From Rhizobiaceae bacterium (GTDB lineage: Bacteria > Pseudomonadota > Alphaproteobacteria > Rhizobiales > Rhizobiaceae), in contig JABABQ010000066.1 of NCBI GenBank assembly GCA_014238155.1, positions 124,001 through 188,000 of the forward strand: a stretch of 64,000 bases of DNA, written 5' to 3'. Position numbers and translations under genes: made by a program. The notes under the pieces are model-generated. The model was not told the origin of the DNA and searched no databases. It saw only the letters and a program-made list of their open reading frames with translations. Below, in pieces: positions 14,923 through 41,276 of the stretch (position 1 is its first letter; every line of letters starts with the position of its first letter).

Positions 14923-15048
14923 AAAAAAACGCTCGCTGCGGGAGGAGGTGCAGCGAGCGTTCTATGTGCGGTTCAGCTTCGTTTGGGAGGAAAAGAGCTG
15001 AACCTCTTTCAGCCGATTATGGGAGGAGTGATCGGCTTGAAGCTTTGT
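14923..15048 (-). ncRNA. Three-hairpin cuckoo/CcsR-like sRNA region with terminator
   Basis: Directly after the DUF1127 stop the minus-strand transcript folds into three hairpins. Hairpin A (15037-15011) has a 7-bp stem AGCCGAU/AUCGGCU and a loop with CUCCUCCC. Hairpin B (15003-14971) has an 8-bp stem GUUCAGCU/AGCUGAAC and a loop with CCUCCC. Hairpin C (14961-14928) has a 12-bp GC-rich stem, the loop ACCUCCUCCC, and a following U run, so it is also the terminator. Loops with CCUCCUCCC can pair with ribosome binding sites. The arrangement matches the CcsR sRNAs of Rhodobacter, made from the 3' UTR of a DUF1127 gene and part of the cuckoo RNA family. Confidence 0.75.
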
Positions 15049-29020: not shown

Positions 29021-29115
29021 TGCGAAAATTCGACTGAAACCGCTCACTCAATATTTCAATATTTTCCCTAAGGTCATCTCTGGTAGGGAAACTACTATTG
29101 GAACAGGGCGTACCA

Positions 29116-30336
29116 ATGAACAACAAAAGTGTAGCTGCACAGCGGGCCGCTGGCAGAAAAGAAGTTCGTGCTGATGATCGGGATGAACAAGAATTATTGG
29201 ACTGGCAAATCAATTCCAAATGGGCCGACGGGAGCGCGATTGACTCTCAGTTTGCCGGGCCTCCGGAGTGGGCCAGCCGATCAAGCAACACTTATAATTC
29301 AGGCGGACAGAAGGCGGCTGGCCGGGGCAAGAAGACTGATAGCACAGATCAAAACACTTTCGACAATAGCGGCGACGATTGGTTCGATGGTGTTGCCAAT
29401 TCTCAAAAAATGGATGGCGGCGCAGGCGTAGATACAGCAAATTATGCGCTGTCTGGATCGGCCGTTGAAGTTGATCTGATCACCGGAAAAGGCAAGTACG
29501 GAGATGCTGTGGGCGATCGCTACGATAGCATTGAAAATGTTCATGGTTCCAATGTCGGTGACCTGATTATTGGCGATGAACAAACCAACCGTCTCGTGGG
29601 GCGCGATGGAGATGACACGATTTTGGCCGGAGGTGGCAAAGATACGCTGCTTGGTGGACGTGGCGCCGACCTGATGGATGGTGGAGAAGGTGTCGATACA
29701 GCTGAATATGACTGGTCGACCACAGGTGTTGACGTCAATTTGACCACCGGTATGGGGCAGGGTGGGTTTGCTGAAGGCGACACACTGGCGAATATTGAAA
29801 ACCTCAATGGCTCTTATCACAACGACATTTTGACCGGAGATGACGGCGTCAACCGCCTGTTCGGCGATGATGGTGACGATGTTATGTTTGGCCTGTCGGG
29901 CGATGATATTCTGGCGGGTGGCCTGGGCGCAGATACTTTTTATGGAGGTGAGGGCGATCGGGATGCGGCCGATTACCAAAATGCGGATGCAGCGGTATCC
30001 GTCGATCTGGTGAATGGTGGATTTGGTGGTGAAGCCCTGAATGACATTTTTCATTCAATCGAGTTCGTCTACGGGTCTGACTTTGATGACGTCCTTATCG
30101 GCAACGATGCGAAAAACCGGTTGGTTGGCGGAGAAGGCAAAGACGATCTGGCCGGTGCTGGTGGCATTGATTACCTGTTGGGTGGCATCGGTGATGACAT
30201 GATGGCAGGTGGCGATGGTAATGACGTGTTCGAACTCGCGGAACAGTTTGGAAATGACACGATCAGCGACTTTGAAGCCGGAGAGGGGCGCACTGACAGA
30301 ATCTGGTTCCGCGGTCTTGACCCTGAAGGAAAGTGA
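29116..30336 (+). CDS. RTX-type calcium-binding protein, frameshifted near the end
   Basis: A 406-residue RTX protein, probably once secreted by a type I system. After a polar N-terminal region (1-95) come repeated blocks of glycine- and aspartate-rich nonapeptides (VGRDGDDTILAGGGKDTL, FGDDGDDVMFGLSGDD, GGIGDDMMAGGDGND) alternating with NV.GS..DLI.G-type strands, which bind Ca2+. ATG 29116 has AGGG upstream. The C-terminal signal expected after DTISDFEAGEGRTDRIWF is missing: the frame stops at 30336, while another frame continues it to 30451. I see no secretion genes nearby. Whether the shift is real or a sequencing error is open. Confidence 0.75.
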   Translation: MNNKSVAAQRAAGRKEVRADDRDEQELLDWQINSKWADGSAIDSQFAGPPEWASRSSNTYNSGGQKAAGRGKKTDSTDQNTFDNSGDDWFDGVANSQKMDGGAGVDTANYALSGSAVEVDLITGKGKYGDAVGDRYDSIENVHGSNVGDLIIGDEQTNRLVGRDGDDTILAGGGKDTLLGGRGADLMDGGEGVDTAEYDWSTTGVDVNLTTGMGQGGFAEGDTLANIENLNGSYHNDILTGDDGVNRLFGDDGDDVMFGLSGDDILAGGLGADTFYGGEGDRDAADYQNADAAVSVDLVNGGFGGEALNDIFHSIEFVYGSDFDDVLIGNDAKNRLVGGEGKDDLAGAGGIDYLLGGIGDDMMAGGDGNDVFELAEQFGNDTISDFEAGEGRTDRIWFRGLDPEGK

Positions 30337-30451
30337 TCTGATCCTCACTTATGGTGATGCTGGTGTCACGATTGACACCGGCTTGCATGGTTCGCTGCTA
30401 TTGCTCAACGTCCTGGCCGAGGATCTGAACTCAGACGATTACATATTTTAG
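30326..30451 (+). pseudogene. Detached C-terminus of the RTX protein (frame +2)
   Basis: In the second frame the sequence reads TLKESDLILTYGDAGVTIDT and ends LAEDLNSDDYIF, the usual end of type I secreted RTX proteins. Removing a single base in the region 30314-30325 joins it to the 29116 frame and would give a 444-residue protein. Confidence 0.7.
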
Positions 30452-30887
30452 TGGGGTATGAATACTTCATTGAAAAGAAGCGCGGCACTCCGCCTGCCGC
30501 GCTTCAACCTATTTCGGGTGGGTTGAAACGTTTTGTCACGGTGTCCCGTTTCTCCTTTTGCGTTAATTTGAATGTTGAAGGCTGGTGACAATCAGAACTA
30601 ACATCCTGAAAAAAATGCTATCTGAGGGCCCGGTAACTGGAGTATCGGACTGTACAAAACAAGGGTGATGCCCTGATTGGCGATGATTCCTCAGTCTTGA
30701 AGGTTGATTTCAATCGCCGCAGTCACGTTCGACATTCAATATTGTGTTAATATTCATGATTAACTGAGCTTTAATTTTATGTGCTTGATCCTGGGCGAAG
30801 TTGATTGATAGTAGAAATACATATCAATTCTTAGTGTGAAGCCGATTGTATAGCAGTCGGTCGGTTTGCGATCAGGAGGTCAATACG
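30452..30887. other. Non-coding gap between RTX gene and acidic protein gene
   Basis: The 436 bases hold one strong hairpin at 30477-30505 and an AT-rich stretch at 30735-30790 that could carry a promoter for the next gene. The end contains AGGAGG at 30874-30879, the ribosome binding site of that gene. I find no further gene. Confidence 0.5.
30477..30505. terminator. GC-rich hairpin after the RTX gene
   Basis: GAAGCGCGGCA and TGCCGCGCTTC form an 11-bp stem with a seven-base loop. On the minus strand it is followed by TTTTC; on the + strand the following run is weak. It likely ends transcription of the RTX gene and may act from both sides. Confidence 0.5.
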
Positions 30888-32174
30888 GTGGGCGATTTCG
30901 AACGGGTTGAACCGATCATTACTTATGTAACGCCAGGCGAGAGCGGGTATTTGGGGCCTCTCGATGATCCCGAGAAATCTCAATTTGTGCTCGACGGTGA
31001 AGATGCAGACAACGACGCATTGTTGGACGAAGACAGCCAGGAACTATCAAACAAATTCGAGCCTGCGCCATTCAGCGATGCAGATGAAGCCGACCAAGAG
31101 AGCGAAGACGAAGAGAGCGAAGACGAAGAGGATGTTGGCGAGTTCAACGATACTCCTGGAGAAACACAGTTTGTCTACGGTGATGATGCGGAAAAAACAT
31201 TTGTTATAGACGCTGACGTTGCGGGTTACAGTTGGGGACCAACAGAAGACGGCCTCGGTATTGTTGTCTGGGGTCCGGACGGCCACGACCTCCTTTACGG
31301 CATTGAAACCATTCAGTTCAGCGACCAGACGGTCTCATTGGTTCACGACGACGGTGAAGTCGAAGACGTCGCCTATGCATCACAACATCTGGTTGCTTCG
31401 GGTTCGGACGACGGATTTGTCATTGACGGCAATTCAAAAGATTATGGCTACGGCCCGACGGAAGATGGCACCGGCATCGTGGTTTGGGGCGAGACCGGTT
31501 TTGACATTCTTTACGGATTTTCGAAGCTGATATTTAGTGATACTGAAATCGACCTCAGCAGTTTTGACCTGGGCGATGATGAGTACACCGAAGACGATAA
31601 TATCAAAGATGATGAATTCGCTGAAGACGAAGACGACATTTCCGAGGATGAAGACGATAATACGGAAGATGACGACGGTAGTGCCGTGGATGAAGACGAT
31701 ACTGCCGAGGATGGCGACGACATAGTCGAAGACGACGACGGTAGCACCGATGCTGATGACATAGCCGAAGACGACGATGGTAGTGCCGATGCTGATGACA
31801 TAGTCGAAGACGACGACGGTAGTGCCGATGCTGATGACGATACTGTTGAGGATGGCGACGACATAGTCGAAGACGACGACGGTAGTACCGATGACGACGA
31901 CGGTAGTACCGATGATGACAACGCTAATACCGATGACGACGACATAATCGAAGACGATGACGATAGTACCGAGGATGAAGACGACATTACCGAAGATGAC
32001 GACGACGGAAGTTCCGAGGACGACGACATAGTCGAAGAAGACGACGGTGGTACCGAAGACGAAGTTGAAGATTCAAAGGGCGATGAAGATTACATCGACT
32101 TTGATTGCGAAGATGTCTTGGGGGACATGGACGAATTCATCGAACAATACGAAGAAGATGACGCGGATTCATAG
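30888..32174 (+). CDS. Highly acidic secreted or surface protein with two beta-strand repeats
   Basis: A 428-residue protein I cannot assign. GTG 30888 is chosen because AGGAGG stands eight bases before it. Residues 60-85 are Glu/Asp-rich. Two similar units at about 98-151 and 169-223 share the pattern FVID...GYGPTEDGTGIVVWG..GFDLLYG....FSD, resembling strand modules in RTX and VCBS proteins. The last 205 residues are nearly all Asp, Glu, Ser, Thr, Gly and Ala, with only two lysines and no other basic residue. No signal peptide is visible, so export, if any, would be by a C-terminal signal. It could bind Ca2+ or cationic polymers. Confidence 0.65.
   Translation: MGDFERVEPIITYVTPGESGYLGPLDDPEKSQFVLDGEDADNDALLDEDSQELSNKFEPAPFSDADEADQESEDEESEDEEDVGEFNDTPGETQFVYGDDAEKTFVIDADVAGYSWGPTEDGLGIVVWGPDGHDLLYGIETIQFSDQTVSLVHDDGEVEDVAYASQHLVASGSDDGFVIDGNSKDYGYGPTEDGTGIVVWGETGFDILYGFSKLIFSDTEIDLSSFDLGDDEYTEDDNIKDDEFAEDEDDISEDEDDNTEDDDGSAVDEDDTAEDGDDIVEDDDGSTDADDIAEDDDGSADADDIVEDDDGSADADDDTVEDGDDIVEDDDGSTDDDDGSTDDDNANTDDDDIIEDDDDSTEDEDDITEDDDDGSSEDDDIVEEDDGGTEDEVEDSKGDEDYIDFDCEDVLGDMDEFIEQYEEDDADS
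31620..32060 (+). repeat. Imperfect tandem repeats coding the acidic tail
   Basis: Short units around GACGACGACGGTAGT recur with GATGCTGATGACATA and similar codons, giving copies of EDDDGS and ADADDI. Such near-identical units can expand or contract by slippage. The antisense of this stretch gives a poly-serine frame that is not a gene. Confidence 0.7.
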
Positions 32175-32264
32175 GCCGGTTCTGCGTGGCGCAATATCTT
32201 GCCCTTGCGACACTGTCTGATTTGACTGTTGGACCATCAACAGTCTGCCCCGCAGGTTTGCTGG

Positions 32265-33734
32265 CTAGAAACTCACCTCTAGACCGGACCGAACGGTGAA
32301 TTGCTCATATTCTGACTGGATTTCATCCTCATCCTGTTCCTCAGCCATCTTCATGCTGGAGGCAAGTACGATTTTGATATTGTCATTCAGCGTATAAAGA
32401 CCTTCGGCTTCGACCAGATATTCCATCGATTCAGTCAAGCCGCCAAAATTCCGTTCATCAGACAGCGATGCTGCAAGGCTCAATTCAAGATCTGAAGTTG
32501 GCGACCAGTTCAATTCAACCGCATAGGTTTTGACATCTACGAAATAGCCATCGGTATCCTCGATTTCTTCAAACTCGCGTTTGACCGAAGCTGTCAGTTC
32601 GAATTCGTCGGTGGGATTCCAGGCTAGATTGGCGTCCAGGAAACTGTCGGTATGCCAGGAGCTGGAGACTTCCCTAGCGTCGAAACGACCTCCAATATCG
32701 AGACGCAAGTTTCCCAATATCTGAGCGGAGATTCCCACTGTTGTCGTCAGGTTTTGTGAGTCACGATTAAGATCACCGCTGTTTACAAATGCGACATTTG
32801 AGGCACCAAGCCGCAGATAGGGTGATACGCGCGCCTTCGGCAGAAGTTTGATTTCCGAGGCTACCGACAAATTTGTGTAGTTCAGTTCGTTGGCGAAAGA
32901 GTTCTCGTCGTCATCAAGTTGATCCGGGTGGATCTTGAATTCAGCCGTGCCGCGCAATGCTGCACTGATGTTGTCGCTGGCATGGGCCAATTCGACGAAA
33001 CCGGTACTGGTCAGCGTTCCGTCGGAGCTGGTTCGGTCGTCTATCAGACCCAATCCACTGCTGGCACGAAATCCGTTGGACAGATCGATTCCCGCCTGCG
33101 CAGCAACGGCAAAATCAAGACTATGCTCATCGGCAAATCGCAGGCTTTGCTCGTGTGCGACTTCGCCTTCCAGACGCCAGAACAGACCGTCCTGCTGATA
33201 TTCGGCCGCCACCTCAATATTATTTTGAAGAACAGTGGAAGTTCGTCCACCCGCACTTTCGTCGATATTGGAATCAAAACCCAAGGTCGATGTGAGTTTC
33301 AGTTCAGATCGAAAAGGGCCCTTATCCGATGCCTTGTCGTCATCGTCATCGCTGTCTTCGTTATTGCCGTCGCCGTTATTGCCGTCGCCAGTTGCGTTAT
33401 TTTCTGCCTCTTCGTTGTTATCGGTTTGATCAGCGTTTGAGTCGTCCTGATCATCAGCATCATCCTGGTCGGTGGTTTCCGGCTCAGCTTCAATAATCAT
33501 CATTGTCGGTTCAGAACCAAAAATTTTCGGACGGGTGGTCCGGTCCACTCCCGAAGCGCGGCCGGTTTGTTCCCTGAAAACCCCATCGCCGAGCAAACTC
33601 ATGCGCCCGACCAGTCCGGGATAATGATACGGCAAGGTCGCCCGCAGCGTCGGCGCTTGTTGGCCGTGCGCGGACATCACGAACAGTGAATTCGTTGGCA
33701 AAGCCACTGACAAGATAACTAAGAGACTACGCAA
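32265..33734 (-). CDS. Outer-membrane beta-barrel protein with acidic N-terminal segment
   Basis: A 489-residue exported protein. Residues 1-24 form a signal peptide (TTG start at 33734) ending AHG. Residues 70-145 are very rich in Asp, Glu, Asn and Gln, then SELKLTSTLGFDSNIDES starts a series of alternating strands with aromatic girdles, ending VRSGLEVSF with the terminal Phe used by the BAM machinery. It resembles the rhizobial outer-membrane beta-barrel group (OMP_b-brl_2/BBP2 type). It is transcribed toward the acidic protein gene and away from the polymer cluster; the two starts share a 213-base AT-rich gap. Confidence 0.7.
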   Translation of the reverse strand: MRSLLVILSVALPTNSLFVMSAHGQQAPTLRATLPYHYPGLVGRMSLLGDGVFREQTGRASGVDRTTRPKIFGSEPTMMIIEAEPETTDQDDADDQDDSNADQTDNNEEAENNATGDGNNGDGNNEDSDDDDDKASDKGPFRSELKLTSTLGFDSNIDESAGGRTSTVLQNNIEVAAEYQQDGLFWRLEGEVAHEQSLRFADEHSLDFAVAAQAGIDLSNGFRASSGLGLIDDRTSSDGTLTSTGFVELAHASDNISAALRGTAEFKIHPDQLDDDENSFANELNYTNLSVASEIKLLPKARVSPYLRLGASNVAFVNSGDLNRDSQNLTTTVGISAQILGNLRLDIGGRFDAREVSSSWHTDSFLDANLAWNPTDEFELTASVKREFEEIEDTDGYFVDVKTYAVELNWSPTSDLELSLAASLSDERNFGGLTESMEYLVEAEGLYTLNDNIKIVLASSMKMAEEQDEDEIQSEYEQFTVRSGLEVSF

Positions 33735-33879: not shown

Positions 33880-33947
33880 TGGAATAATCGACTTGCATGT
33901 CAACAAGAGGTGTTTTTGGGGTCAGCATCGGGAATAAGGGCAACATT

Positions 33948-35267
33948 ATGACGCGTAAAGTAGTAGAATTTCCGCCTAGGACAACCAATGTTTCAAGTTT
34001 TGAGCGATTGGAATCCAACGTTCAGTCCTACGCCAATAATTTTCCAGATGTATTTGAGTTTGCCGAAGGCGCTGAAATTTGGGCCAACAACGGAAAACGC
34101 TATTTGGATTTTTTGTCCGGAGCTGGCTCTCTAAACTATGGGCACAACCCATCTGAGTTGAAATCGGAGCTGTTGAAATATATCGAGAACAACAACATTT
34201 CAAACAGTCTTGATCTTCATACGAAGGCCAAAAAGGAATTTCTCGACGCACTGGATGAAGTGGTTTTAAAACCGCGTGGGCTGGATCATGTGGTTCAGTT
34301 TACAGGTCCAACTGGTGCCAATGCTGTGGAGGCTGCCTTAAAGCTGGCCCGGCGGGTGACTGATCGCACTAATATTGCTGCATTTACCAACGGCTTCCAT
34401 GGCGTCACCACGGGTGCTTTGGCTGCAACGGGCAATGCCTACAACCGGGGCGCCGCCGGTGTTGAGCTCAATGGAATTTCCCGGCTTCCCTATGACGGCT
34501 ATCTGGGTGGCGATTACAACACTGTAGACTATTTTGAAAAGCTGCTTGATGATCCGTCATCGGGAATGGATCTTCCTGCTGCTGTTATTTTTGAAACAGT
34601 TCAGGGTGAGGGCGGTCACAAGGTCGCCTCCGATGCCTGGTTGCAGCAACTGCAGACACTGTGCCGAAAACACAAAATACTGATGATCGCCGATGAAGTG
34701 CAGGCGGGCTGCGGTCGTACCGGTGACTTTTTTGGATTTGACAGTTCTGGAATTGCTCCCGACATAATTGCCGTTTCCAAGTCCATTTCCGGTTATGGAC
34801 TGCCTCTCGCACTTTGCCTGATAAAGCGCGATCTCGACGCCTGGTTGCCGGGCGAGCACAACGGAACATTCCGCGGCAACAATCTTGCGTTCGTTACAGC
34901 GACCGCTGCCCTGAACAAATTTTGGAAGTCGGGAAAGTTTGAGGCCGAGATATCACAACGTTCGGTTTTGTTGCGTCAGCGTTTGACCAAAATCACAGAA
35001 CAGCACCGTGATATGATCTCCGAAACCCGTGGGAAAGGCATGATGATGGGCCTTGCGTTCAGCGACCCTGAACTGGCCCGCCGGATCACCACTCATGCGT
35101 TCCAGCTCGGACTTATTGCAGAAAGGGTCGGTCCGCGTGATGAAGTTTTGAAGATCATGGCGCCGATCAACGTTCGAATGGATCACCTTGATGAGGGTCT
35201 CAACATCCTCGAAGCGTCGATTGAGGAAGTGATCAGCACTTCGCCCCATTCAAAATTTGCTGACTGA
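33948..35267 (+). CDS. ectB: Diaminobutyrate-2-oxoglutarate aminotransferase, EctB-type
   Basis: A 439-residue class III PLP aminotransferase of the EctB branch, which makes L-2,4-diaminobutyrate from aspartate semialdehyde and glutamate. The PLP lysine lies in VSKSISGYGLPLAL (about K278), the Asp in LMIADEVQAG (about D249), and PGEHNGTFRGNN is the EctB signature. ATG 33948 follows AAGGG. No ectA or ectC is nearby, so ectoine is not the likely product. The next gene, eleven bases on, is a Pls-like NRPS, suggesting the diaminobutyrate is its monomer. Confidence 0.85.
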   Translation: MTRKVVEFPPRTTNVSSFERLESNVQSYANNFPDVFEFAEGAEIWANNGKRYLDFLSGAGSLNYGHNPSELKSELLKYIENNNISNSLDLHTKAKKEFLDALDEVVLKPRGLDHVVQFTGPTGANAVEAALKLARRVTDRTNIAAFTNGFHGVTTGALAATGNAYNRGAAGVELNGISRLPYDGYLGGDYNTVDYFEKLLDDPSSGMDLPAAVIFETVQGEGGHKVASDAWLQQLQTLCRKHKILMIADEVQAGCGRTGDFFGFDSSGIAPDIIAVSKSISGYGLPLALCLIKRDLDAWLPGEHNGTFRGNNLAFVTATAALNKFWKSGKFEAEISQRSVLLRQRLTKITEQHRDMISETRGKGMMMGLAFSDPELARRITTHAFQLGLIAERVGPRDEVLKIMAPINVRMDHLDEGLNILEASIEEVISTSPHSKFAD

Positions 35268-35278
35268 AGGATTGCCCG

Positions 35279-38200
35279 ATGCTGGACGATATTCAGGGTG
35301 CTGTGACAAATGGTGTGCAATTTGATGTGGACAGTTCCGTCTATGTCGATAAGCACAACTATGTACTGAGCGGATCAGCAACAACTTCACAGGACATTTA
35401 TTGGCACGATGGCGAGCGGTTTCATCATATCATCGAACAGCTTGTTGATGATCTTGGAACCAAAGTAGCCCGCAATAAAGTGGCTGTGGAATATGCCGAT
35501 AGTCAAATTAACTGGCATGAACTGGAAATTCTGGCTAACCGCATCGCATCGCTGATGATTGCCTGGGGCGTAAAGCCCGGCGACCGGGTGGCCGCGTTGT
35601 TTGATCGCTCAATATTTGCCTATGCCACTCAACTGGCGACGTCGAAATGCGGAGCGGTGCTTGTTCCGCTTGATGCCGCCTTTCCAAAAGAGCGCATTAA
35701 ATTCATTCTCGATGACAGCGGCGTAAATTTTGTTGCAACGCTGACCCAGTATTCGCTTCTGTTTAAGGATATGGGCGCAACCGTCATGGCGTTCGACGCC
35801 CTTCAGGAGGAACTTGAACGGCAACCTTCCAAACGCCCGGTTATCAAAACCAAACATGCTGATGAACTTTGCTATTTGATTTATACGTCAGGCACGACCG
35901 GACGGCCGAAAGGTGTGCAAATCAACCATTCCAGCATCTGCAATTTTCTAAAAATGGCAGCTGAAGAATATGGGTTTAACAGCAATGACCGCGTCTACCA
36001 GTCGCTGACTATTGCATTTGACTATTCATTTGAAGAGATCTGGGTTCCCTTGATAAGCGGCGCTGTTTTGGTGCCGGCCCCATCGGGCGTCAATCTGCTG
36101 GGCTCCGATCTGGCAGATTTTTTGGTCGCACAACAGATCACGGCGTTTTGCTCGGTTCCAACAATATTGGCAACGATTGAACAGGAATTGCCCGATCTGC
36201 GTCTGCTGATCACGTCGGGTGAGGCATTTCCGGCCGATCTGCTGTCGCGATGGGCCAAGCCGGACAGAACGGTTCTGAATTTGTACGGTCCCACCGAAAC
36301 TACCGTTTCGGCCACATGGTCACGTCTTGAGGAAGGTTCGTCTGTAACCATCGGCCATCCGCTGCCGACCTACAGCGTCATGGTGCTTCATCCCGACAGA
36401 AACGAAGTACTGCCATTTGGCGAAGAGGGCGAACTGGCAATTTCCGGGATTGGTGTATCGCGCGGATATCTCAATCGGGAAACCGAAACTGCCCGGGCCT
36501 TTATCAAAGACTTTATCGGTTTGGAAAATAATCCAACCGGCCTGATCTACCGGTCTGGTGACCGAGTTCAGATAAATCAGCGGGAGGAGATCGAATATCT
36601 GGGCCGGATCGACAGCCAGGTCAAGATTCGCGGATACCGCATTGAACTGGGTGAAATCGAGGCCGTTGCCAGAGAAACTGATGACCTGCCTGCGATCGTT
36701 GTAAATCCGGTCGAAATTGAACCGGGCTCTGTTGAGTTGGCAGCCTATTTTGTCGCCGGAGACAAGGACAGCCCGATTGATGCCGGTGTCATTCAGGAGA
36801 CATTGAAGCAACGTTTGCCAACATACATGGTTCCCGCCTATTTCGAGCCCATCAGGGAAATTCCCATGCTGGCCAGCGGTAAAGTGGATCGCAATGCCCT
36901 ACCTATGCCATCGGGGCCAAGATTGCTCGACGGCGGAAAGAAATTTGTTGCCCCGAGTGAGGGCCTTGAGGCTAGCCTTGCCGAAATTTTGGGAACTCTG
37001 CTCAAAACCGAAGCCATATCCGCCGATGCAGATTTCTTTGATGACCTGGGAGCCAATTCCCTGATCATGGCTCGTTACATCGGATCGGTTCGCAAGAAGC
37101 TTGGACTGAAAAAAGTCAGCATGAAGCTGATTTACGAACAAACAACGGTGGCAAGTCTTGCAACTGCATTGGCGCCAACTGATGCGCCGGAAGTTGAAGA
37201 ATCGGCACCAAAATCCATGCGGCCCGATACTTTGGTTGAAAAAACCAAAGACCTTAGCAGCATGATGTCAAAGCCGCTTATTGCTGCCAAACCAGATGTT
37301 GCAAACGTCGGGATCGAAACCTTAGAAACGGCATTGGACACCACACCAAACCAAGTCGAAGCTCAATCGCAGCCGTCGTCAGACAAAACCATCTGGGCTG
37401 ACGATCAACGCATCCACATTGCCAAACCCTGGGAATATTATCTGTGTGGCGCTCTCCAACTCTCCTATATGTTCGTGATTTCTTTGCTCGGCAGCATAGT
37501 CGCAATAGCTGCGCTCCGGTGGATATTGAATAGCGAGGGATTTTGGGAAATCTACCTACGATCGGCGGTCAGTGGAAGTGGGTTGTTTTTTGGCTCGATA
37601 GCATTCTTCACTGCCGTAAAATGGCTCGTATGGGGTCGATATAAGCAGGAAGAAATTAAGCTCTGGAGCCTGGATTATGTGCGGTTCTGGATTGCTCAAT
37701 TGTCGACGCGAGCCAATCCTATGGTGGCATTTGCGGGCTCGCCCCTGTATAATGTTTATCTGAGATTGCTCGGGGCGAAGGTTGGCAGAGGCGCTCGCAT
37801 TTTTGCAGTCCCGCCAGTGTGTACCGATTTGGTGTCGATCGGAGAAAATTCGGTCGTTCGGCAATCCGCGATTCTAACAGGATTTACCGTTCATCGCGGC
37901 ATTGTCCGAATGGGAACTGTGGAGATTGGCGACAATTCCTTCATCGGCGAAGCTTCGATGATGGATATAAACACGAAAATTGGCTCCGGCAGCCAACTCG
38001 GTACTTCGTCGTGCCTGCACGAAAACCAGCAAGTGCCGGATGGCGAAATCTATCAGGGATCACCTGCGCAAAAAACCGAAACCGATTATATCAGAGTGCC
38101 ACCGCTGGAGATCTCGGAATTGCGTGCCTGGCTTTATACGGTGGGTGGCTTTGTTCCCGGAATGGTGGTCTCAGCACCTCTGTCGTTTGCCATTGTGGTT

Positions 38201-39568
38201 CTGCTGGCCCAACAGGCTTTTTTGGGGTCGACACCGGCTGTAACCGCCGGGTCGCTACCGCTCAATCCCGTCTATCTGTTCGGCTATTCAGTGGCGATTT
38301 ATTTTGGTGGCATTGTGCTGGCTCTGATCAGCGTCATGACAATGCCGAAACTGTATAATCTGTTTTTCAGGCCGGACGAGGTACACCCTCTATTCGGCCT
38401 TCAGTACTATCTGGCGACCCGCATTGAAGCGGGCAGTCAATCGGCGTTTTTGCAGGAATTGTTCGGTGATTGCTCTATGATATTGCCCTATTTCACGGCA
38501 CTCGGGTACGACCTCAGTGAATCCACTCAAAACGGATCGAATTTCGGAGTTGAACAACTCCACCACTCTCCTTTTTTGTGCAAATTCAATCGCAATACTC
38601 TGGTATCGGACGGATTGCACATGATGAACATGGATCACTCTCAATCGTCGTTCAAAATGTCGGCTATCGAAGTTCCGCCTGATGCCTATTTGGGAAATAA
38701 TCTTCACTATCCAGTGGGTGCCAGGATTGGTGACAATTGTCTTGTCGCAACCAAGGCGATGGTGCCGATTGATGGCGAAATGAAAGACAATTGCGGCATT
38801 CTGGGGTCTCCACCTTTTGCGATCCCACGTTCTGGACCGATGGATCCGACCCACGCTCACTACAAGCAACCCGGCGTATTTGAAAAACGCCTGTCGATGA
38901 AGTTGAAGTCAAACCTGATCACATTGTTTCTGTTTATGGCGCGGAACCTGTCGGTCGTCTTTTTAATGACACTCCTTACAGCCGCGATCTATCAGGTTTG
39001 GGGAGCCGAAATTTTGAGTTCGACAATGTTTGGCGCCTTGGTTTTGGCGGTCTCGATGACTGGCATGTCGATCATCCTTCCGTTGTACTTCATCGTGTTT
39101 GAACGATTGCAACATTTGCACCGGCCAATGAAGCCCAGAATTTGCTCGCTGTATGAGCGGCACTTCTGGGATCACGAACGCTTTTGGAAACTCAACATCA
39201 ACCATTATCTGGTGTTATTTGACGGCACGCCAATCAAGAATTTATTCACCCGCTGCCAGGGCGTGAAGCTTGGGCGCATGGTTTATGATGGCGGTGCCGG
39301 TATTTCCGAGCCGCATATGGTGGAGGTTGGCGACTATGTCTGTCTCAACATAGAAACGGAATTGCAGGGTCATTCTCTGGAAGACGGTACATTCAAGTCG
39401 GACGCTATCAAAGTCGGCGACAGAAGCACCGTGGGAGTGAAAGGTTTTGTTCATTACGGCGTGGAAGCTGGCAAAGACGTCGTCATCAACGCAGATGCGT
39501 TCGTCATGAAAGGCTCAGTCGTGGGCGACGATGAAATATGGAGCGGAAACCCCGCCAGGAATATCTAG
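35279..39568 (+). CDS. Pls-like membrane NRPS, predicted poly-diaminobutyrate synthetase
   Basis: A 1429-residue single-module synthetase built like epsilon-poly-L-lysine synthetase. The A domain (about 50-545) has IYTSGTTGRPKG, NLYGPTET, RSGDRV and the catalytic Lys in ASGKVDRN (K535); Asp248 should bind the alpha-amino group, and Glu252 at code position 239 suits a basic side chain. The carrier domain has Ser594 in DDLGANSLI. Then three pairs of membrane helices (about 720-785, 955-1022, 1210-1272) alternate with three hexapeptide-type soluble domains, as in Pls, where they link amino groups. It has no condensation or thioesterase domain. Strict substrate is not proven. Confidence 0.85.
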   Translation: MLDDIQGAVTNGVQFDVDSSVYVDKHNYVLSGSATTSQDIYWHDGERFHHIIEQLVDDLGTKVARNKVAVEYADSQINWHELEILANRIASLMIAWGVKPGDRVAALFDRSIFAYATQLATSKCGAVLVPLDAAFPKERIKFILDDSGVNFVATLTQYSLLFKDMGATVMAFDALQEELERQPSKRPVIKTKHADELCYLIYTSGTTGRPKGVQINHSSICNFLKMAAEEYGFNSNDRVYQSLTIAFDYSFEEIWVPLISGAVLVPAPSGVNLLGSDLADFLVAQQITAFCSVPTILATIEQELPDLRLLITSGEAFPADLLSRWAKPDRTVLNLYGPTETTVSATWSRLEEGSSVTIGHPLPTYSVMVLHPDRNEVLPFGEEGELAISGIGVSRGYLNRETETARAFIKDFIGLENNPTGLIYRSGDRVQINQREEIEYLGRIDSQVKIRGYRIELGEIEAVARETDDLPAIVVNPVEIEPGSVELAAYFVAGDKDSPIDAGVIQETLKQRLPTYMVPAYFEPIREIPMLASGKVDRNALPMPSGPRLLDGGKKFVAPSEGLEASLAEILGTLLKTEAISADADFFDDLGANSLIMARYIGSVRKKLGLKKVSMKLIYEQTTVASLATALAPTDAPEVEESAPKSMRPDTLVEKTKDLSSMMSKPLIAAKPDVANVGIETLETALDTTPNQVEAQSQPSSDKTIWADDQRIHIAKPWEYYLCGALQLSYMFVISLLGSIVAIAALRWILNSEGFWEIYLRSAVSGSGLFFGSIAFFTAVKWLVWGRYKQEEIKLWSLDYVRFWIAQLSTRANPMVAFAGSPLYNVYLRLLGAKVGRGARIFAVPPVCTDLVSIGENSVVRQSAILTGFTVHRGIVRMGTVEIGDNSFIGEASMMDINTKIGSGSQLGTSSCLHENQQVPDGEIYQGSPAQKTETDYIRVPPLEISELRAWLYTVGGFVPGMVVSAPLSFAIVVLLAQQAFLGSTPAVTAGSLPLNPVYLFGYSVAIYFGGIVLALISVMTMPKLYNLFFRPDEVHPLFGLQYYLATRIEAGSQSAFLQELFGDCSMILPYFTALGYDLSESTQNGSNFGVEQLHHSPFLCKFNRNTLVSDGLHMMNMDHSQSSFKMSAIEVPPDAYLGNNLHYPVGARIGDNCLVATKAMVPIDGEMKDNCGILGSPPFAIPRSGPMDPTHAHYKQPGVFEKRLSMKLKSNLITLFLFMARNLSVVFLMTLLTAAIYQVWGAEILSSTMFGALVLAVSMTGMSIILPLYFIVFERLQHLHRPMKPRICSLYERHFWDHERFWKLNINHYLVLFDGTPIKNLFTRCQGVKLGRMVYDGGAGISEPHMVEVGDYVCLNIETELQGHSLEDGTFKSDAIKVGDRSTVGVKGFVHYGVEAGKDVVINADAFVMKGSVVGDDEIWSGNPARNI

Positions 39569-39604
39569 TAAACAGCCGAATATAAGGAATAGTAGGAGAA
39601 TATT

Positions 39605-40504
39605 ATGCAATTGGAAGTCGTAAAAGATATATCGCAGGAAGAGTTTGTGGCTGAATATGTAGCCAGGAACAAGCCGGTCGTGGTCGACAACATTCCTTAT
39701 TCGGCTGAGAACTGGACGCCGGAGGCTCTTAAGAAGTCAATTGGTGAGCTGACAACGCAGATTTACGGAACTCTTTTTGATTTGGAGAATATTGCCAGTC
39801 TTGAAGAATATCTCGACGACTATTTTGGCGAAACCGGAGACTATCCCGACGACGTTCCTTACGTTCGCTGGTACAATCAGTTGAAGGATGTTGACTTTGT
39901 CTGGGGTGATGAGGCTTTTGAAGCGCTTCAACCATTTTGGCAAAAACCCAATTGTGTTCCCGATCATGATCTCATTGTTCCCGTGACATCCGATACTCAA
40001 TCGGCCGACCCGGTGATGGATAATTTTCCCTATCGGGGTATATTGGTTGCTGCCCGCGGGGCGAGAACACGCATGCACCGTGATCCGTTTTGCAGTGACG
40101 CAATTGTCGCTCAGTTTCACGGTACCAAGCAGGCCGTTCTGTATCATCCCGACCGAGCCGAAGAATTGATGGAAGCCAGCGATGGCAGCTCATTTGGTGG
40201 ATTTATTGACGTTCGGGAAGAAGGCAATCTCGAAGTTGTCACGGCTGAACCGGATTATCAGGGACTGATTACGCCCGGCCAGATGATCTATATTCCGCAC
40301 GGCTGGCTGCATGACGTGCTGGTCGTCGATGATTCAGTCTCAGTGACCTGGAATTTCGTGCACAAGCAAGGAGCCCAGGAATTTCTGCAATATCTGAAGG
40401 ATGACCCGTCTGAGGACAGCGAGTTTGAGGTGCTGCAGTATTTTATGAAACGCGGCGGCGCGGGCGAACTGGACCACCGGCAATTGCTGGCTGCCGTTGC
40501 ATAA
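39605..40504 (+). CDS. JmjC/cupin_8 Fe(II)/2-oxoglutarate oxygenase
   Basis: A 299-residue cupin_8 protein, the bacterial JmjC-like hydroxylase family. The iron ligands look complete: His158 and Asp160 in MHRDPF and His236 in PHGWLHDV; Lys175 in GTKQAVLYHP may bind 2-oxoglutarate. AGGAG stands seven bases before the ATG, and the gene follows the Pls-like gene by 36 bases in the same direction. It could hydroxylate diaminobutyrate, the carrier-bound monomer or the polymer, or an unrelated protein. No cofactor or export domain is present. Confidence 0.8.
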   Translation: MQLEVVKDISQEEFVAEYVARNKPVVVDNIPYSAENWTPEALKKSIGELTTQIYGTLFDLENIASLEEYLDDYFGETGDYPDDVPYVRWYNQLKDVDFVWGDEAFEALQPFWQKPNCVPDHDLIVPVTSDTQSADPVMDNFPYRGILVAARGARTRMHRDPFCSDAIVAQFHGTKQAVLYHPDRAEELMEASDGSSFGGFIDVREEGNLEVVTAEPDYQGLITPGQMIYIPHGWLHDVLVVDDSVSVTWNFVHKQGAQEFLQYLKDDPSEDSEFEVLQYFMKRGGAGELDHRQLLAAVA

Positions 40505-40505
40505 A

Positions 40506-41276
40506 TCATTTTGCTTTGAGTTTAGCGTCGCTGTGCCTTATGTCTGGCGCCTCCAGCGACGTTACAACGGTCAAAACATGGTCTTTGGGTCCGCTCAATG
40601 CGTGTCCGTAGAGGTCATCGTGGGAAGATGTATCTGAGATAATTGTTACCAATCCCCCTTCCGGGGAAGTTTGGATTTTTGCGAAATCCAACTCAGCGCC
40701 GCGACCGGTTGCCTTCGAACAGGCCTCCTTTTGGGTCCACATGAAAAAATAAGCCAACGTCGCGGCGGGCTCTTTCAATTTGGCCAAGAGATCGCGTTCG
40801 GCAGAACTGAAAAGCTCTTCGATCACATGTCGGTCGGCAGCCTGGGGGTCTATCCTCTCCAGATCAATACCTATGGGTTCTGCTGAAACGGCCATCGCGA
40901 TCCAGTTTTCGCGTTTGGATAGGCTAAAATTTGGAGCGCCCTGATTGAGGCAAATAGGTTTGCCGGTGTCGTAGCTGAAAGCAATTTTTTGAGGATCAAT
41001 ATCCAACCAGTCTCCGAGGATCAGCCGGGAAAATATTCGCGTGCAGATGTATTGATCGCGCATCTGGAGATTTTGGATTTTGGCGGCCCGAACCTGTTCG
41101 CTTTGATCGAGCAGGCTTTTTTGGAGTGATCGATCGATCCTGGTGGTGTTGACCTGCCAGACTTCGATTACATTTTCTGGTGAGGCACCAGCATCAACGC
41201 CCGCTTCGGAGGGAAAAGTACGATGTGTAATTCGGTCTGCAGCCATTTCTCTCCCGTCCCCCCTTTTTCCAATCAT
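40506..41276 (-). CDS. 4'-phosphopantetheinyl transferase, Sfp-type
   Basis: A 256-residue PPTase that converts apo carrier proteins to holo form with CoA. The two signatures are present: GIDLERI (D138, E140 binding Mg2+) and WTQKEACSKATGRG (W180, K183, E184). I choose the ATG at 41276 because GGAG stands six bases before it; starts at 41351 and 41246 are possible. It converges with the oxygenase gene (one base between stops) and most likely activates the carrier domain of the Pls-like synthetase. It shares the strand with tgt, idi and hemA. Confidence 0.88.
   Translation of the reverse strand: MIGKRGDGREMAADRITHRTFPSEAGVDAGASPENVIEVWQVNTTRIDRSLQKSLLDQSEQVRAAKIQNLQMRDQYICTRIFSRLILGDWLDIDPQKIAFSYDTGKPICLNQGAPNFSLSKRENWIAMAVSAEPIGIDLERIDPQAADRHVIEELFSSAERDLLAKLKEPAATLAYFFMWTQKEACSKATGRGAELDFAKIQTSPEGGLVTIISDTSSHDDLYGHALSGPKDHVLTVVTSLEAPDIRHSDAKLKAK

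What the first reader, a model, noticed from the sequence alone, without database searches (positions are those of the whole stretch)
33948..41276. EctB + Pls-like NRPS + JmjC oxygenase + PPTase: candidate polydiaminobutyrate pathway in an alphaproteobacterium
Seen: EctB-type aminotransferase, a 1429-residue A-T protein with three pairs of membrane helices and three hexapeptide-like domains, an oxygenase with an intact iron triad, and an Sfp-type PPTase, all adjacent. Known: epsilon-poly-L-lysine synthetase of Streptomyces has this A-T-membrane layout, and related enzymes make poly-diaminobutyrate. Inference: EctB feeds diaminobutyrate to the synthetase, and a cationic isopeptide, possibly hydroxylated, is made. 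The set with a JmjC gene is new to me.
Basis: partly seen in the sequence, partly recalled or inferred. Interest (0 to 1): 0.9.

Follow-up and report, generated by a model that had tools for sequence, protein, structure and literature searches.

The report
Poly-diaminobutyrate synthetase with a JmjC partner
An alphaproteobacterium carries a compact gene set that very probably makes a positively charged polymer of diaminobutyric acid, together with an iron-dependent oxygenase gene that may modify the polymer.

Summary
EctB (33948-35267), a Pls/PosA-type synthetase (35279-39568) and a JmjC/cupin_8 oxygenase (39605-40504) lie in tandem on +, with a convergent PPTase (40506-41276). The synthetase passes the Pls/PosA model TIGR02353 (551 bits, cut-off 423). 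Its A-domain code, DYECISLVSK, has Asp-1, Glu-3 and a bulky aromatic at position 2, as published for short diamino acids. Among 90 Pls homologues with a readable code, 17 of 19 of this class sit beside EctB/Dat and 0 of 71 others do. The genome has no close EctB paralogue (next best 31% identity) and no detected ectoine synthase. So gamma-poly-diaminobutyrate is well supported (about 0.85). EctB-Pls recurs in the order (13 of 68 Pls loci) and on two Skermanella plasmids; Dat in the synthetase's gene context is published for actinobacteria. New in what I could search is the JmjC gene, found beside Pls in three genomes (window, MAG OFTM70, Roseovarius aestuarii) whose synthetases form one clade. 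Against a pathway role: a congener has the JmjC gene and no Pls; OFTM70 has no EctB over the cut-off. Hydroxylation of polymer or monomer is the best guess for JmjC (about 0.45), untested. New variant of a known kind.

The parts
33948..35267 (+). ectB-type diaminobutyrate--2-oxoglutarate transaminase (439 aa from 33948; an upstream ATG at 33897 would add 17 aa)
   Evidence: TIGR02407 605 bits, cut-off 552; best solved relatives are diaminobutyrate transaminases 9s1q, 9s1p, 6rl5; the eight other matches in the genome have 27-32% identity
35279..39568 (+). Pls/PosA-family single-module NRPS-like synthetase (1429 aa), predicted gamma-poly-diaminobutyrate synthetase
   Evidence: TIGR02353 551 bits, cut-off 423; the only match over the cut-off in the genome; A-domain code DYECISLVSK
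35471..36901 (+). adenylation domain (residues about 65-541)
   Evidence: PF00501 249 bits over 65-398; DltA-type models reach 541; core motifs at residues 202, 336, 425, 442, 533 (motif names recalled)
36971..37171 (+). carrier (T) domain, residues 565-631, with serine 594 in a GANS motif
   Evidence: PF00550 38 bits; motif position
37442..39556 (+). membrane-bound polymerising domain (residues 722-1426), three hydrophobic pairs
   Evidence: TIGR02353 match; hydropathy
39605..40504 (+). JmjC/cupin_8 Fe(II)/2-oxoglutarate oxygenase (299 aa)
   Evidence: PF13621 57 bits, cut-off 27; JMJD6 is the best solved relative; iron triad and lysine invariant in 4 of 4; directly after Pls in three genomes
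40506..41276 (-). Sfp/HetI-type 4'-phosphopantetheinyl transferase, convergent, downstream of tgt (ORF open to 41351)
   Evidence: PF01648 55.5 bits, cut-off 25; HetI model 84.5 bits, below its cut-off of 370; tgt by TIGR00430

Best explanation
EctB turns L-aspartate semialdehyde and glutamate into L-2,4-diaminobutyrate (Dab). The membrane-bound synthetase adenylates Dab, loads it on its own carrier domain (primed by a PPTase, probably the one encoded beside it), and its C-terminal membrane domain joins Dab units through side-chain amino groups into a gamma-poly-L-Dab. The JmjC/cupin_8 oxygenase, encoded next in the same direction and so probably co-expressed, most likely hydroxylates the Dab units, as carrier-bound residue or as polymer. 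Shown by sequence: the gene set, the families, the Dab-type pocket, the association of code and EctB, the recurrence of Pls-JmjC. Inferred: all the chemistry, co-expression, the L-configuration (none of the neighbours that I named is a racemase; no search for one was made), and above all the JmjC substrate. My confidence is about 0.85 for the poly-Dab core and about 0.45 for JmjC acting on Dab or the polymer; the figure below is for the whole statement.
For: Pls/PosA membership. Code DYECISLVSK: Asp-1 and Glu-3 match the residues whose mutation abolished activity in PosA, and Phe at position 2 is the published mark of PDAP/PDAB synthetases (PMC10522769). The same class (DFECLSAVTK) occurs in a Streptomyces plasmid locus Pls-dat-ask, the published poly-Dab gene set. 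EctB/Dat within 2.5 kb: 17 of 19 rows of the class, 0 of 71 outside; in the order alone, window not counted, 12 of 12 rows of the class, 12 of 13 with OFTM70, and 0 of 52 outside. No ectoine synthase hit in the window genome though the same query rings in R. aestuarii and OFTM70. JmjC: found in 2 of 61 relatives (window, G006), 1 of 385 genomes of the class (window), 2 of 392 of the order (window, OFTM70) and in R. aestuarii; of these four copies three follow Pls directly. The three synthetases form one clade (SH-aLRT 100).
Against: OFTM70, whose code equals the window's, has no EctB over the cut-off anywhere, so there Dab must come another way or is not the substrate. G006, a congener, has the JmjC gene at 62-63% identity but no Pls and no EctB over the cut-off, so JmjC may have a job without the polymer. 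Paenarthrobacter L037 has the code without EctB beside it. Most EctB-Pls loci have no JmjC. No chemistry was seen; rows are related, so the Fisher test overstates independence; R. aestuarii's PPTase is of another subfamily.
Confidence: 0.5

Rival explanations
1. Plain gamma-poly-Dab is made and the JmjC enzyme does not touch it: it hydroxylates a protein, a membrane or wall component, or acts in stress control, and is only co-expressed.
For: A congener (G006) keeps the JmjC gene without Pls, next to a YkuD-type L,D-transpeptidase gene. The best matching solved structures, JMJD6 and FIH, act on proteins (substrates recalled). Most EctB-Pls loci do without JmjC.
Against: Three of the four JmjC copies found follow Pls directly, in three families of Alphaproteobacteria.
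Confidence: 0.35
2. The synthetase uses another short diamino acid (Dap, or an already hydroxylated Dab), with EctB serving another need or the first step only.
For: PMC10522769 says PDAP and PDAB synthetases share Phe at position 2 and are difficult to distinguish by alignment; the Streptomyces PDAP A domain also activates Dab, more weakly (PMC4668381, passages). Position 7 of the code is Leu in the three JmjC-linked enzymes and in no other readable code. OFTM70 lacks EctB over the cut-off.
Against: EctB is next door in the window and R. aestuarii, and in 17 of 19 rows of the code class.
Confidence: 0.15
3. EctB is an ectoine gene that happens to lie beside an unrelated NRPS-like gene.
For: It passes the ectoine equivalog model.
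Against: No ectoine synthase hit in the genome and the strong association of code and EctB.
Confidence: 0.03

Closest known systems
PldA / PddA with Dat and Ask: gamma-poly-L/D-diaminobutyrate of Streptomyces and Streptoalloteichus (PMC8117764 section 5 with its figure legend; PMC8225329 passages)
   Same: Pls architecture; a diaminobutyrate transaminase in the gene context; same class of A-domain code as a Streptomyces Pls-dat-ask locus
   Different: No aspartate kinase or racemase among the neighbours named here; the Streptomyces row lies on a separate branch of the tree; JmjC and PPTase beside it; alphaproteobacterial
PosA, delta-poly-L-ornithine synthetase of Acinetobacter baumannii (PMC10522769)
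   Same: Family, layout, Asp-1/Glu-3 pocket
   Different: Code DMEHNGTVSK with Met at position 2 (Orn); 0 of 6 rows with a DMEH code have EctB beside them
Pls, epsilon-poly-L-lysine synthetase
   Same: Family and layout
   Different: Ala at position 2 per PMC10522769; published gene context is a peptidase (PMC8117764)
Cupin_8 proteins LxaF-G of the laxaphycin NRPS cluster (PMC7524897, passages)
   Same: JmjC-like cupin_8 genes in an NRPS cluster, proposed by its authors to hydroxylate peptide-bound residues
   Different: Ordinary NRPS/PKS product with Leu and Asn as targets; the role there is also a proposal. Not compared by sequence here
Pls beside a TauD/TfdA dioxygenase on Pseudonocardia plasmids
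   Same: Fe/2OG-type oxygenase gene directly after a Pls gene
   Different: Other oxygenase family (PF02668), other code (DLERVSTVT in two rows), no EctB

Membership tests
Pls/PosA family (cationic homopolyamino acid synthetases) | A and T domains followed by the TIGR02353 terminal domain above its cut-off | tested here: met
   551 bits, cut-off 423; A and T domains
Pls/PosA family (cationic homopolyamino acid synthetases) | Three pairs of membrane helices | tested here: met
   Three hydrophobic pairs by hydropathy alone; the second helix of pair one is weak
Pls/PosA family (cationic homopolyamino acid synthetases) | Three left-handed beta-helices packed with three-fold symmetry (itself a prediction in PMC10522769) | tested here: inconclusive
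   Model from three sequences, pLDDT 33; not used
Pls/PosA family (cationic homopolyamino acid synthetases) | Asp at code position 1 and Glu at position 3 | tested here: met
   DYE
Poly-Dab synthetase (PldA/PddA type) | Bulky aromatic at code position 2 | tested here: met
   Tyr in window and OFTM70, Phe in R. aestuarii; the published residue is Phe, so Tyr is a near match
Poly-Dab synthetase (PldA/PddA type) | Diaminobutyrate transaminase gene beside it | tested here: met
   EctB, 11 bases upstream
Poly-Dab synthetase (PldA/PddA type) | Activates Dab and makes a gamma-linked polymer | not testable with these tools
   Needs enzyme assay and mass spectrometry
JmjC/cupin_8 Fe(II)/2OG oxygenases | HxD...H iron triad and 2OG-binding lysine | tested here: met
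   H158, D160, H236, K175; roles of the residues recalled
JmjC/cupin_8 Fe(II)/2OG oxygenases | Double-stranded beta-helix fold | tested here: inconclusive
   Model pLDDT 39; family by HMM only
Ectoine pathway (EctABC) | Ectoine synthase in the genome | tested here: not met
   No hit in the window genome, 97.75% complete; that call's own 14 controls did not ring, but the query rings in two related genomes

The most novel reading that the evidence does not exclude
Probability: 0.4. Interest if true: 0.75.

Novelty: new variant of a known kind. Interest (0 to 1): 0.55.

Why it matters
The natural cationic homopolymers listed in PMC10522769 and PMC9606270 (passages) differ in the diamino acid, its stereochemistry, linkage or branching; I saw none that is hydroxylated. 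A hydroxylated one would change charge spacing, stability and activity against microbes, and as far as my searches show would be the first of this enzyme family altered by a partner oxygenase. The association of code and EctB also gives a cheap genome-mining rule for poly-Dab producers among bacteria outside the actinomycetes, where by the 2023 PosA paper's own account no such polymer was reported before its poly-ornithine.

Tried and rejected
Structures of JmjC and of the Pls C-terminal half: AlphaFold models from 4 and 3 sequences had pLDDT 39 and 33; no fold search was run on them. JmjC on plasmids: no match at E 1e-5. Ectoine origin of EctB: rejected. OFTM70 ectoine-synthase loci as a Dab source: of four matches on three contigs I fetched two contigs (L169, L171), which hold no EctB, and the genome has none over the cut-off. 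R. aestuarii's ectoine-synthase locus holds a class-III aminotransferase at 33% identity that does not pass the EctB cut-off; the one EctB over the cut-off in that genome is the one of the Pls cluster (by position). Paper searches: no listed title or abstract start describes a JmjC gene beside a Pls gene; they cover open-licence PubMed Central papers only, the lists were cut, and supplementary tables could not be read. The 2020 poly-Dab paper (Yamanaka et al.) I know only through papers that cite it. Of each paper I saw: PMC10522769 abstract, passages and sections 10, 11, 13, 14; PMC8117764 passages and section 5; PMC8225329, PMC4668381, PMC9606270, PMC7524897 passages; the rest listings.
Full report
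Observation. The window lies in a 4.8 Mb genome, 97.75% complete; that it is an alphaproteobacterium is inferred from its relatives. On + are EctB (33948-35267), an 11-base gap, the 1429-residue synthetase (35279-39568), a 36-base gap, and the JmjC/cupin_8 gene (39605-40504); a PPTase lies convergent at 40506-41276 (ORF open to 41351), just downstream of tgt on the - strand. EctB passes its equivalog model (605 bits, cut-off 552) and the synthetase the Pls/PosA model (551, cut-off 423). It is the only match over that cut-off in the genome. The oxygenase is Cupin_8 (57 bits) with JMJD6 and FIH as the best solved relatives; its iron triad and lysine are invariant in four sequences.

Substrate. 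I read the ten A-domain code positions from an alignment of 95 Pls homologues. The positions were placed with recalled GrsA numbering and checked: the codes printed for PosA (DMEHNGTVSK) and for the Bdellovibrionales enzyme (DSECYGGVTK) in PMC10522769 come out in L159-L161 and in L163. The window reads DYECISLVSK, OFTM70 the same, R. aestuarii DFECLSLVTK. PMC10522769 (abstract, passages, sections 10, 11, 13, 14) states that mutating Asp-1 or Glu-3 of PosA abolished activity, and that position 2 is Phe in PDAP/PDAB synthetases, Met in PosA, Ala in Pls. Tyr or Phe here points to a short diamino acid; Dab and Dap cannot be told apart by this alone.

EctB and the code go together. Of 95 rows, 90 have a readable code. 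In the class D[FY]E[CAP][LIV]S, 17 of 19 have EctB or Dat within 2.5 kb (misses: OFTM70/L006 and Paenarthrobacter L037); outside it 0 of 71 (Fisher p 2e-16, but rows are related and plasmid rows were chosen for similarity to the window). In the order alone the sample is every Pls match over the cut-off except the window itself and G539, whose locus I did not fetch: 68 loci, of which 13 have EctB beside Pls. Some of these loci end at contig edges, so a few neighbours may be missed. 64 of the 68 entered the code count (left out: L107, L109, L110 for broken or unreadable codes, and L156, taken as the OFTM70 duplicate because contig length and scores agree with L006); 12 of 12 rows of the class have EctB and 0 of 52 others do; with OFTM70 it is 12 of 13. 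L107, left out for a broken frame, also has EctB and the code DFECLSAVTK. A Streptomyces plasmid with Pls-dat-ask has this same code but lies on another branch of the tree, so the link of code and transaminase is seen on two branches. Dat in the gene context of poly-Dab synthetases is published (PMC8117764 section 5 and figure legend; PddC in PMC8225329, passages).

No ectoine pathway was seen in the window genome: the ectoine-synthase model finds nothing there (none of that call's controls rang) and does find matches in R. aestuarii and OFTM70; the best other EctB match in the genome has 31% identity. Absence in a 97.75% complete genome is not proof.

How common. TIGR02353 at 1e-50 or better was found in 10 of 385 genomes of the class, 72 of 397 of the order, 69 of them over the cut-off, 25 of 349 of the phylum, 1 of 15 of the genus (the window only). 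EctB-Pls pairs also lie on two Skermanella plasmids. PPTase genes of several subfamilies lie near Pls in 24 of the 68 loci of the order by phmmer with four PPTase queries, so the PPTase is a plausible but exchangeable partner; R. aestuarii's shows no similarity to the window's at E 1e-4 yet is a PPTase by Pfam.

JmjC. A scan of genome contigs found three relatives: OFTM70 (71%), R. aestuarii (60%) and a Rhizobiaceae MAG (62%), which by its coordinates is the congener G006 (inferred). The first two have Pls directly upstream; R. aestuarii has the full order EctB-Pls-JmjC-PPTase. With the window protein, JmjC was found in 2 of 61 relatives (window and G006); with a four-row profile in 1 of 385 genomes of the class (the window) and 2 of 392 of the order (window and OFTM70, both beside Pls). 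So of four copies three follow Pls, in three families: the window's, OFTM70's and Roseobacteraceae. Their synthetases form one clade (SH-aLRT 100, quick method) in a tree of 59 of the 95 rows (5 rows dropped as partial or misaligned, 31 thinned from two large groups). In these three, JmjC (60-71% identity) is better conserved than the synthetases (45-53%). Results against a pathway role: G006 carries JmjC after a YkuD-type gene, before a gene that reads like secA by eye, with no Pls and no EctB over the cut-off, and most EctB-Pls loci have no JmjC.

Independent hint. This is another Pfam family with other codes, so it does not prove the JmjC role, but oxygenase genes have settled beside Pls more than once. 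Cupin_8 genes in the laxaphycin NRPS cluster are proposed by their authors to hydroxylate peptide-bound residues (PMC7524897, passages).

Judgement. The poly-Dab core is a strong prediction and its kind is known. The JmjC-bearing variant is new to the papers I could search. The function of JmjC is the open point, and one co-expression experiment could settle it.

Noticed in passing
L042 11263-12276, L086 9130-10143, L093 9676-10737: Pseudonocardia plasmids carry a TauD/TfdA dioxygenase gene directly after a Pls gene; code DLERVSTVT in L042 and L086, a similar partial one in L093.
   Followed up: partly
   Followed up: partly
L091 6476-9736, L092 6209-9487, L087 5923-8463: Arthrobacter and Streptomyces plasmids carry carrier-plus-Pls-terminal-domain proteins in which the window's A domain found no match.
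   Followed up: no
L038-L041, L043, L094-L100, L102-L104: A Pls class with DFEALG codes (15 rows) has a PPTase gene next door in 13 of 15, a GNAT acetyltransferase gene in 10 of 15 and EctB in 0 of 15; substrate unknown.
   Followed up: no
L035 11505-15124, L036 11457-14610: On Skermanella plasmids the EctB-Pls pair is followed by a hypothetical gene, an S41 peptidase and a porin, possibly self-protection and export.
   Followed up: no
L008 8411-10894: JmjC gene in a genome without detected Pls, after a YkuD-type L,D-transpeptidase gene.
   Followed up: partly
29098-33734: Just upstream: an RTX-repeat protein, a protein with 41% Asp+Glu (pI 4.05) and a BBP2_2 beta-barrel gene; very acidic proteins beside a polycation pathway may be coincidence.
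   Followed up: no
L006 819-5363: Upstream of Pls in OFTM70 lie an amidase, a protein that reads like an acetylpolyamine/histone deacetylase (by eye; no NCBIfam match) and an OYE-type oxidoreductase.
   Followed up: no
14924-15045: Alphaproteobacterial sRNA ar14 on the - strand (Rfam RF02344).
   Followed up: no
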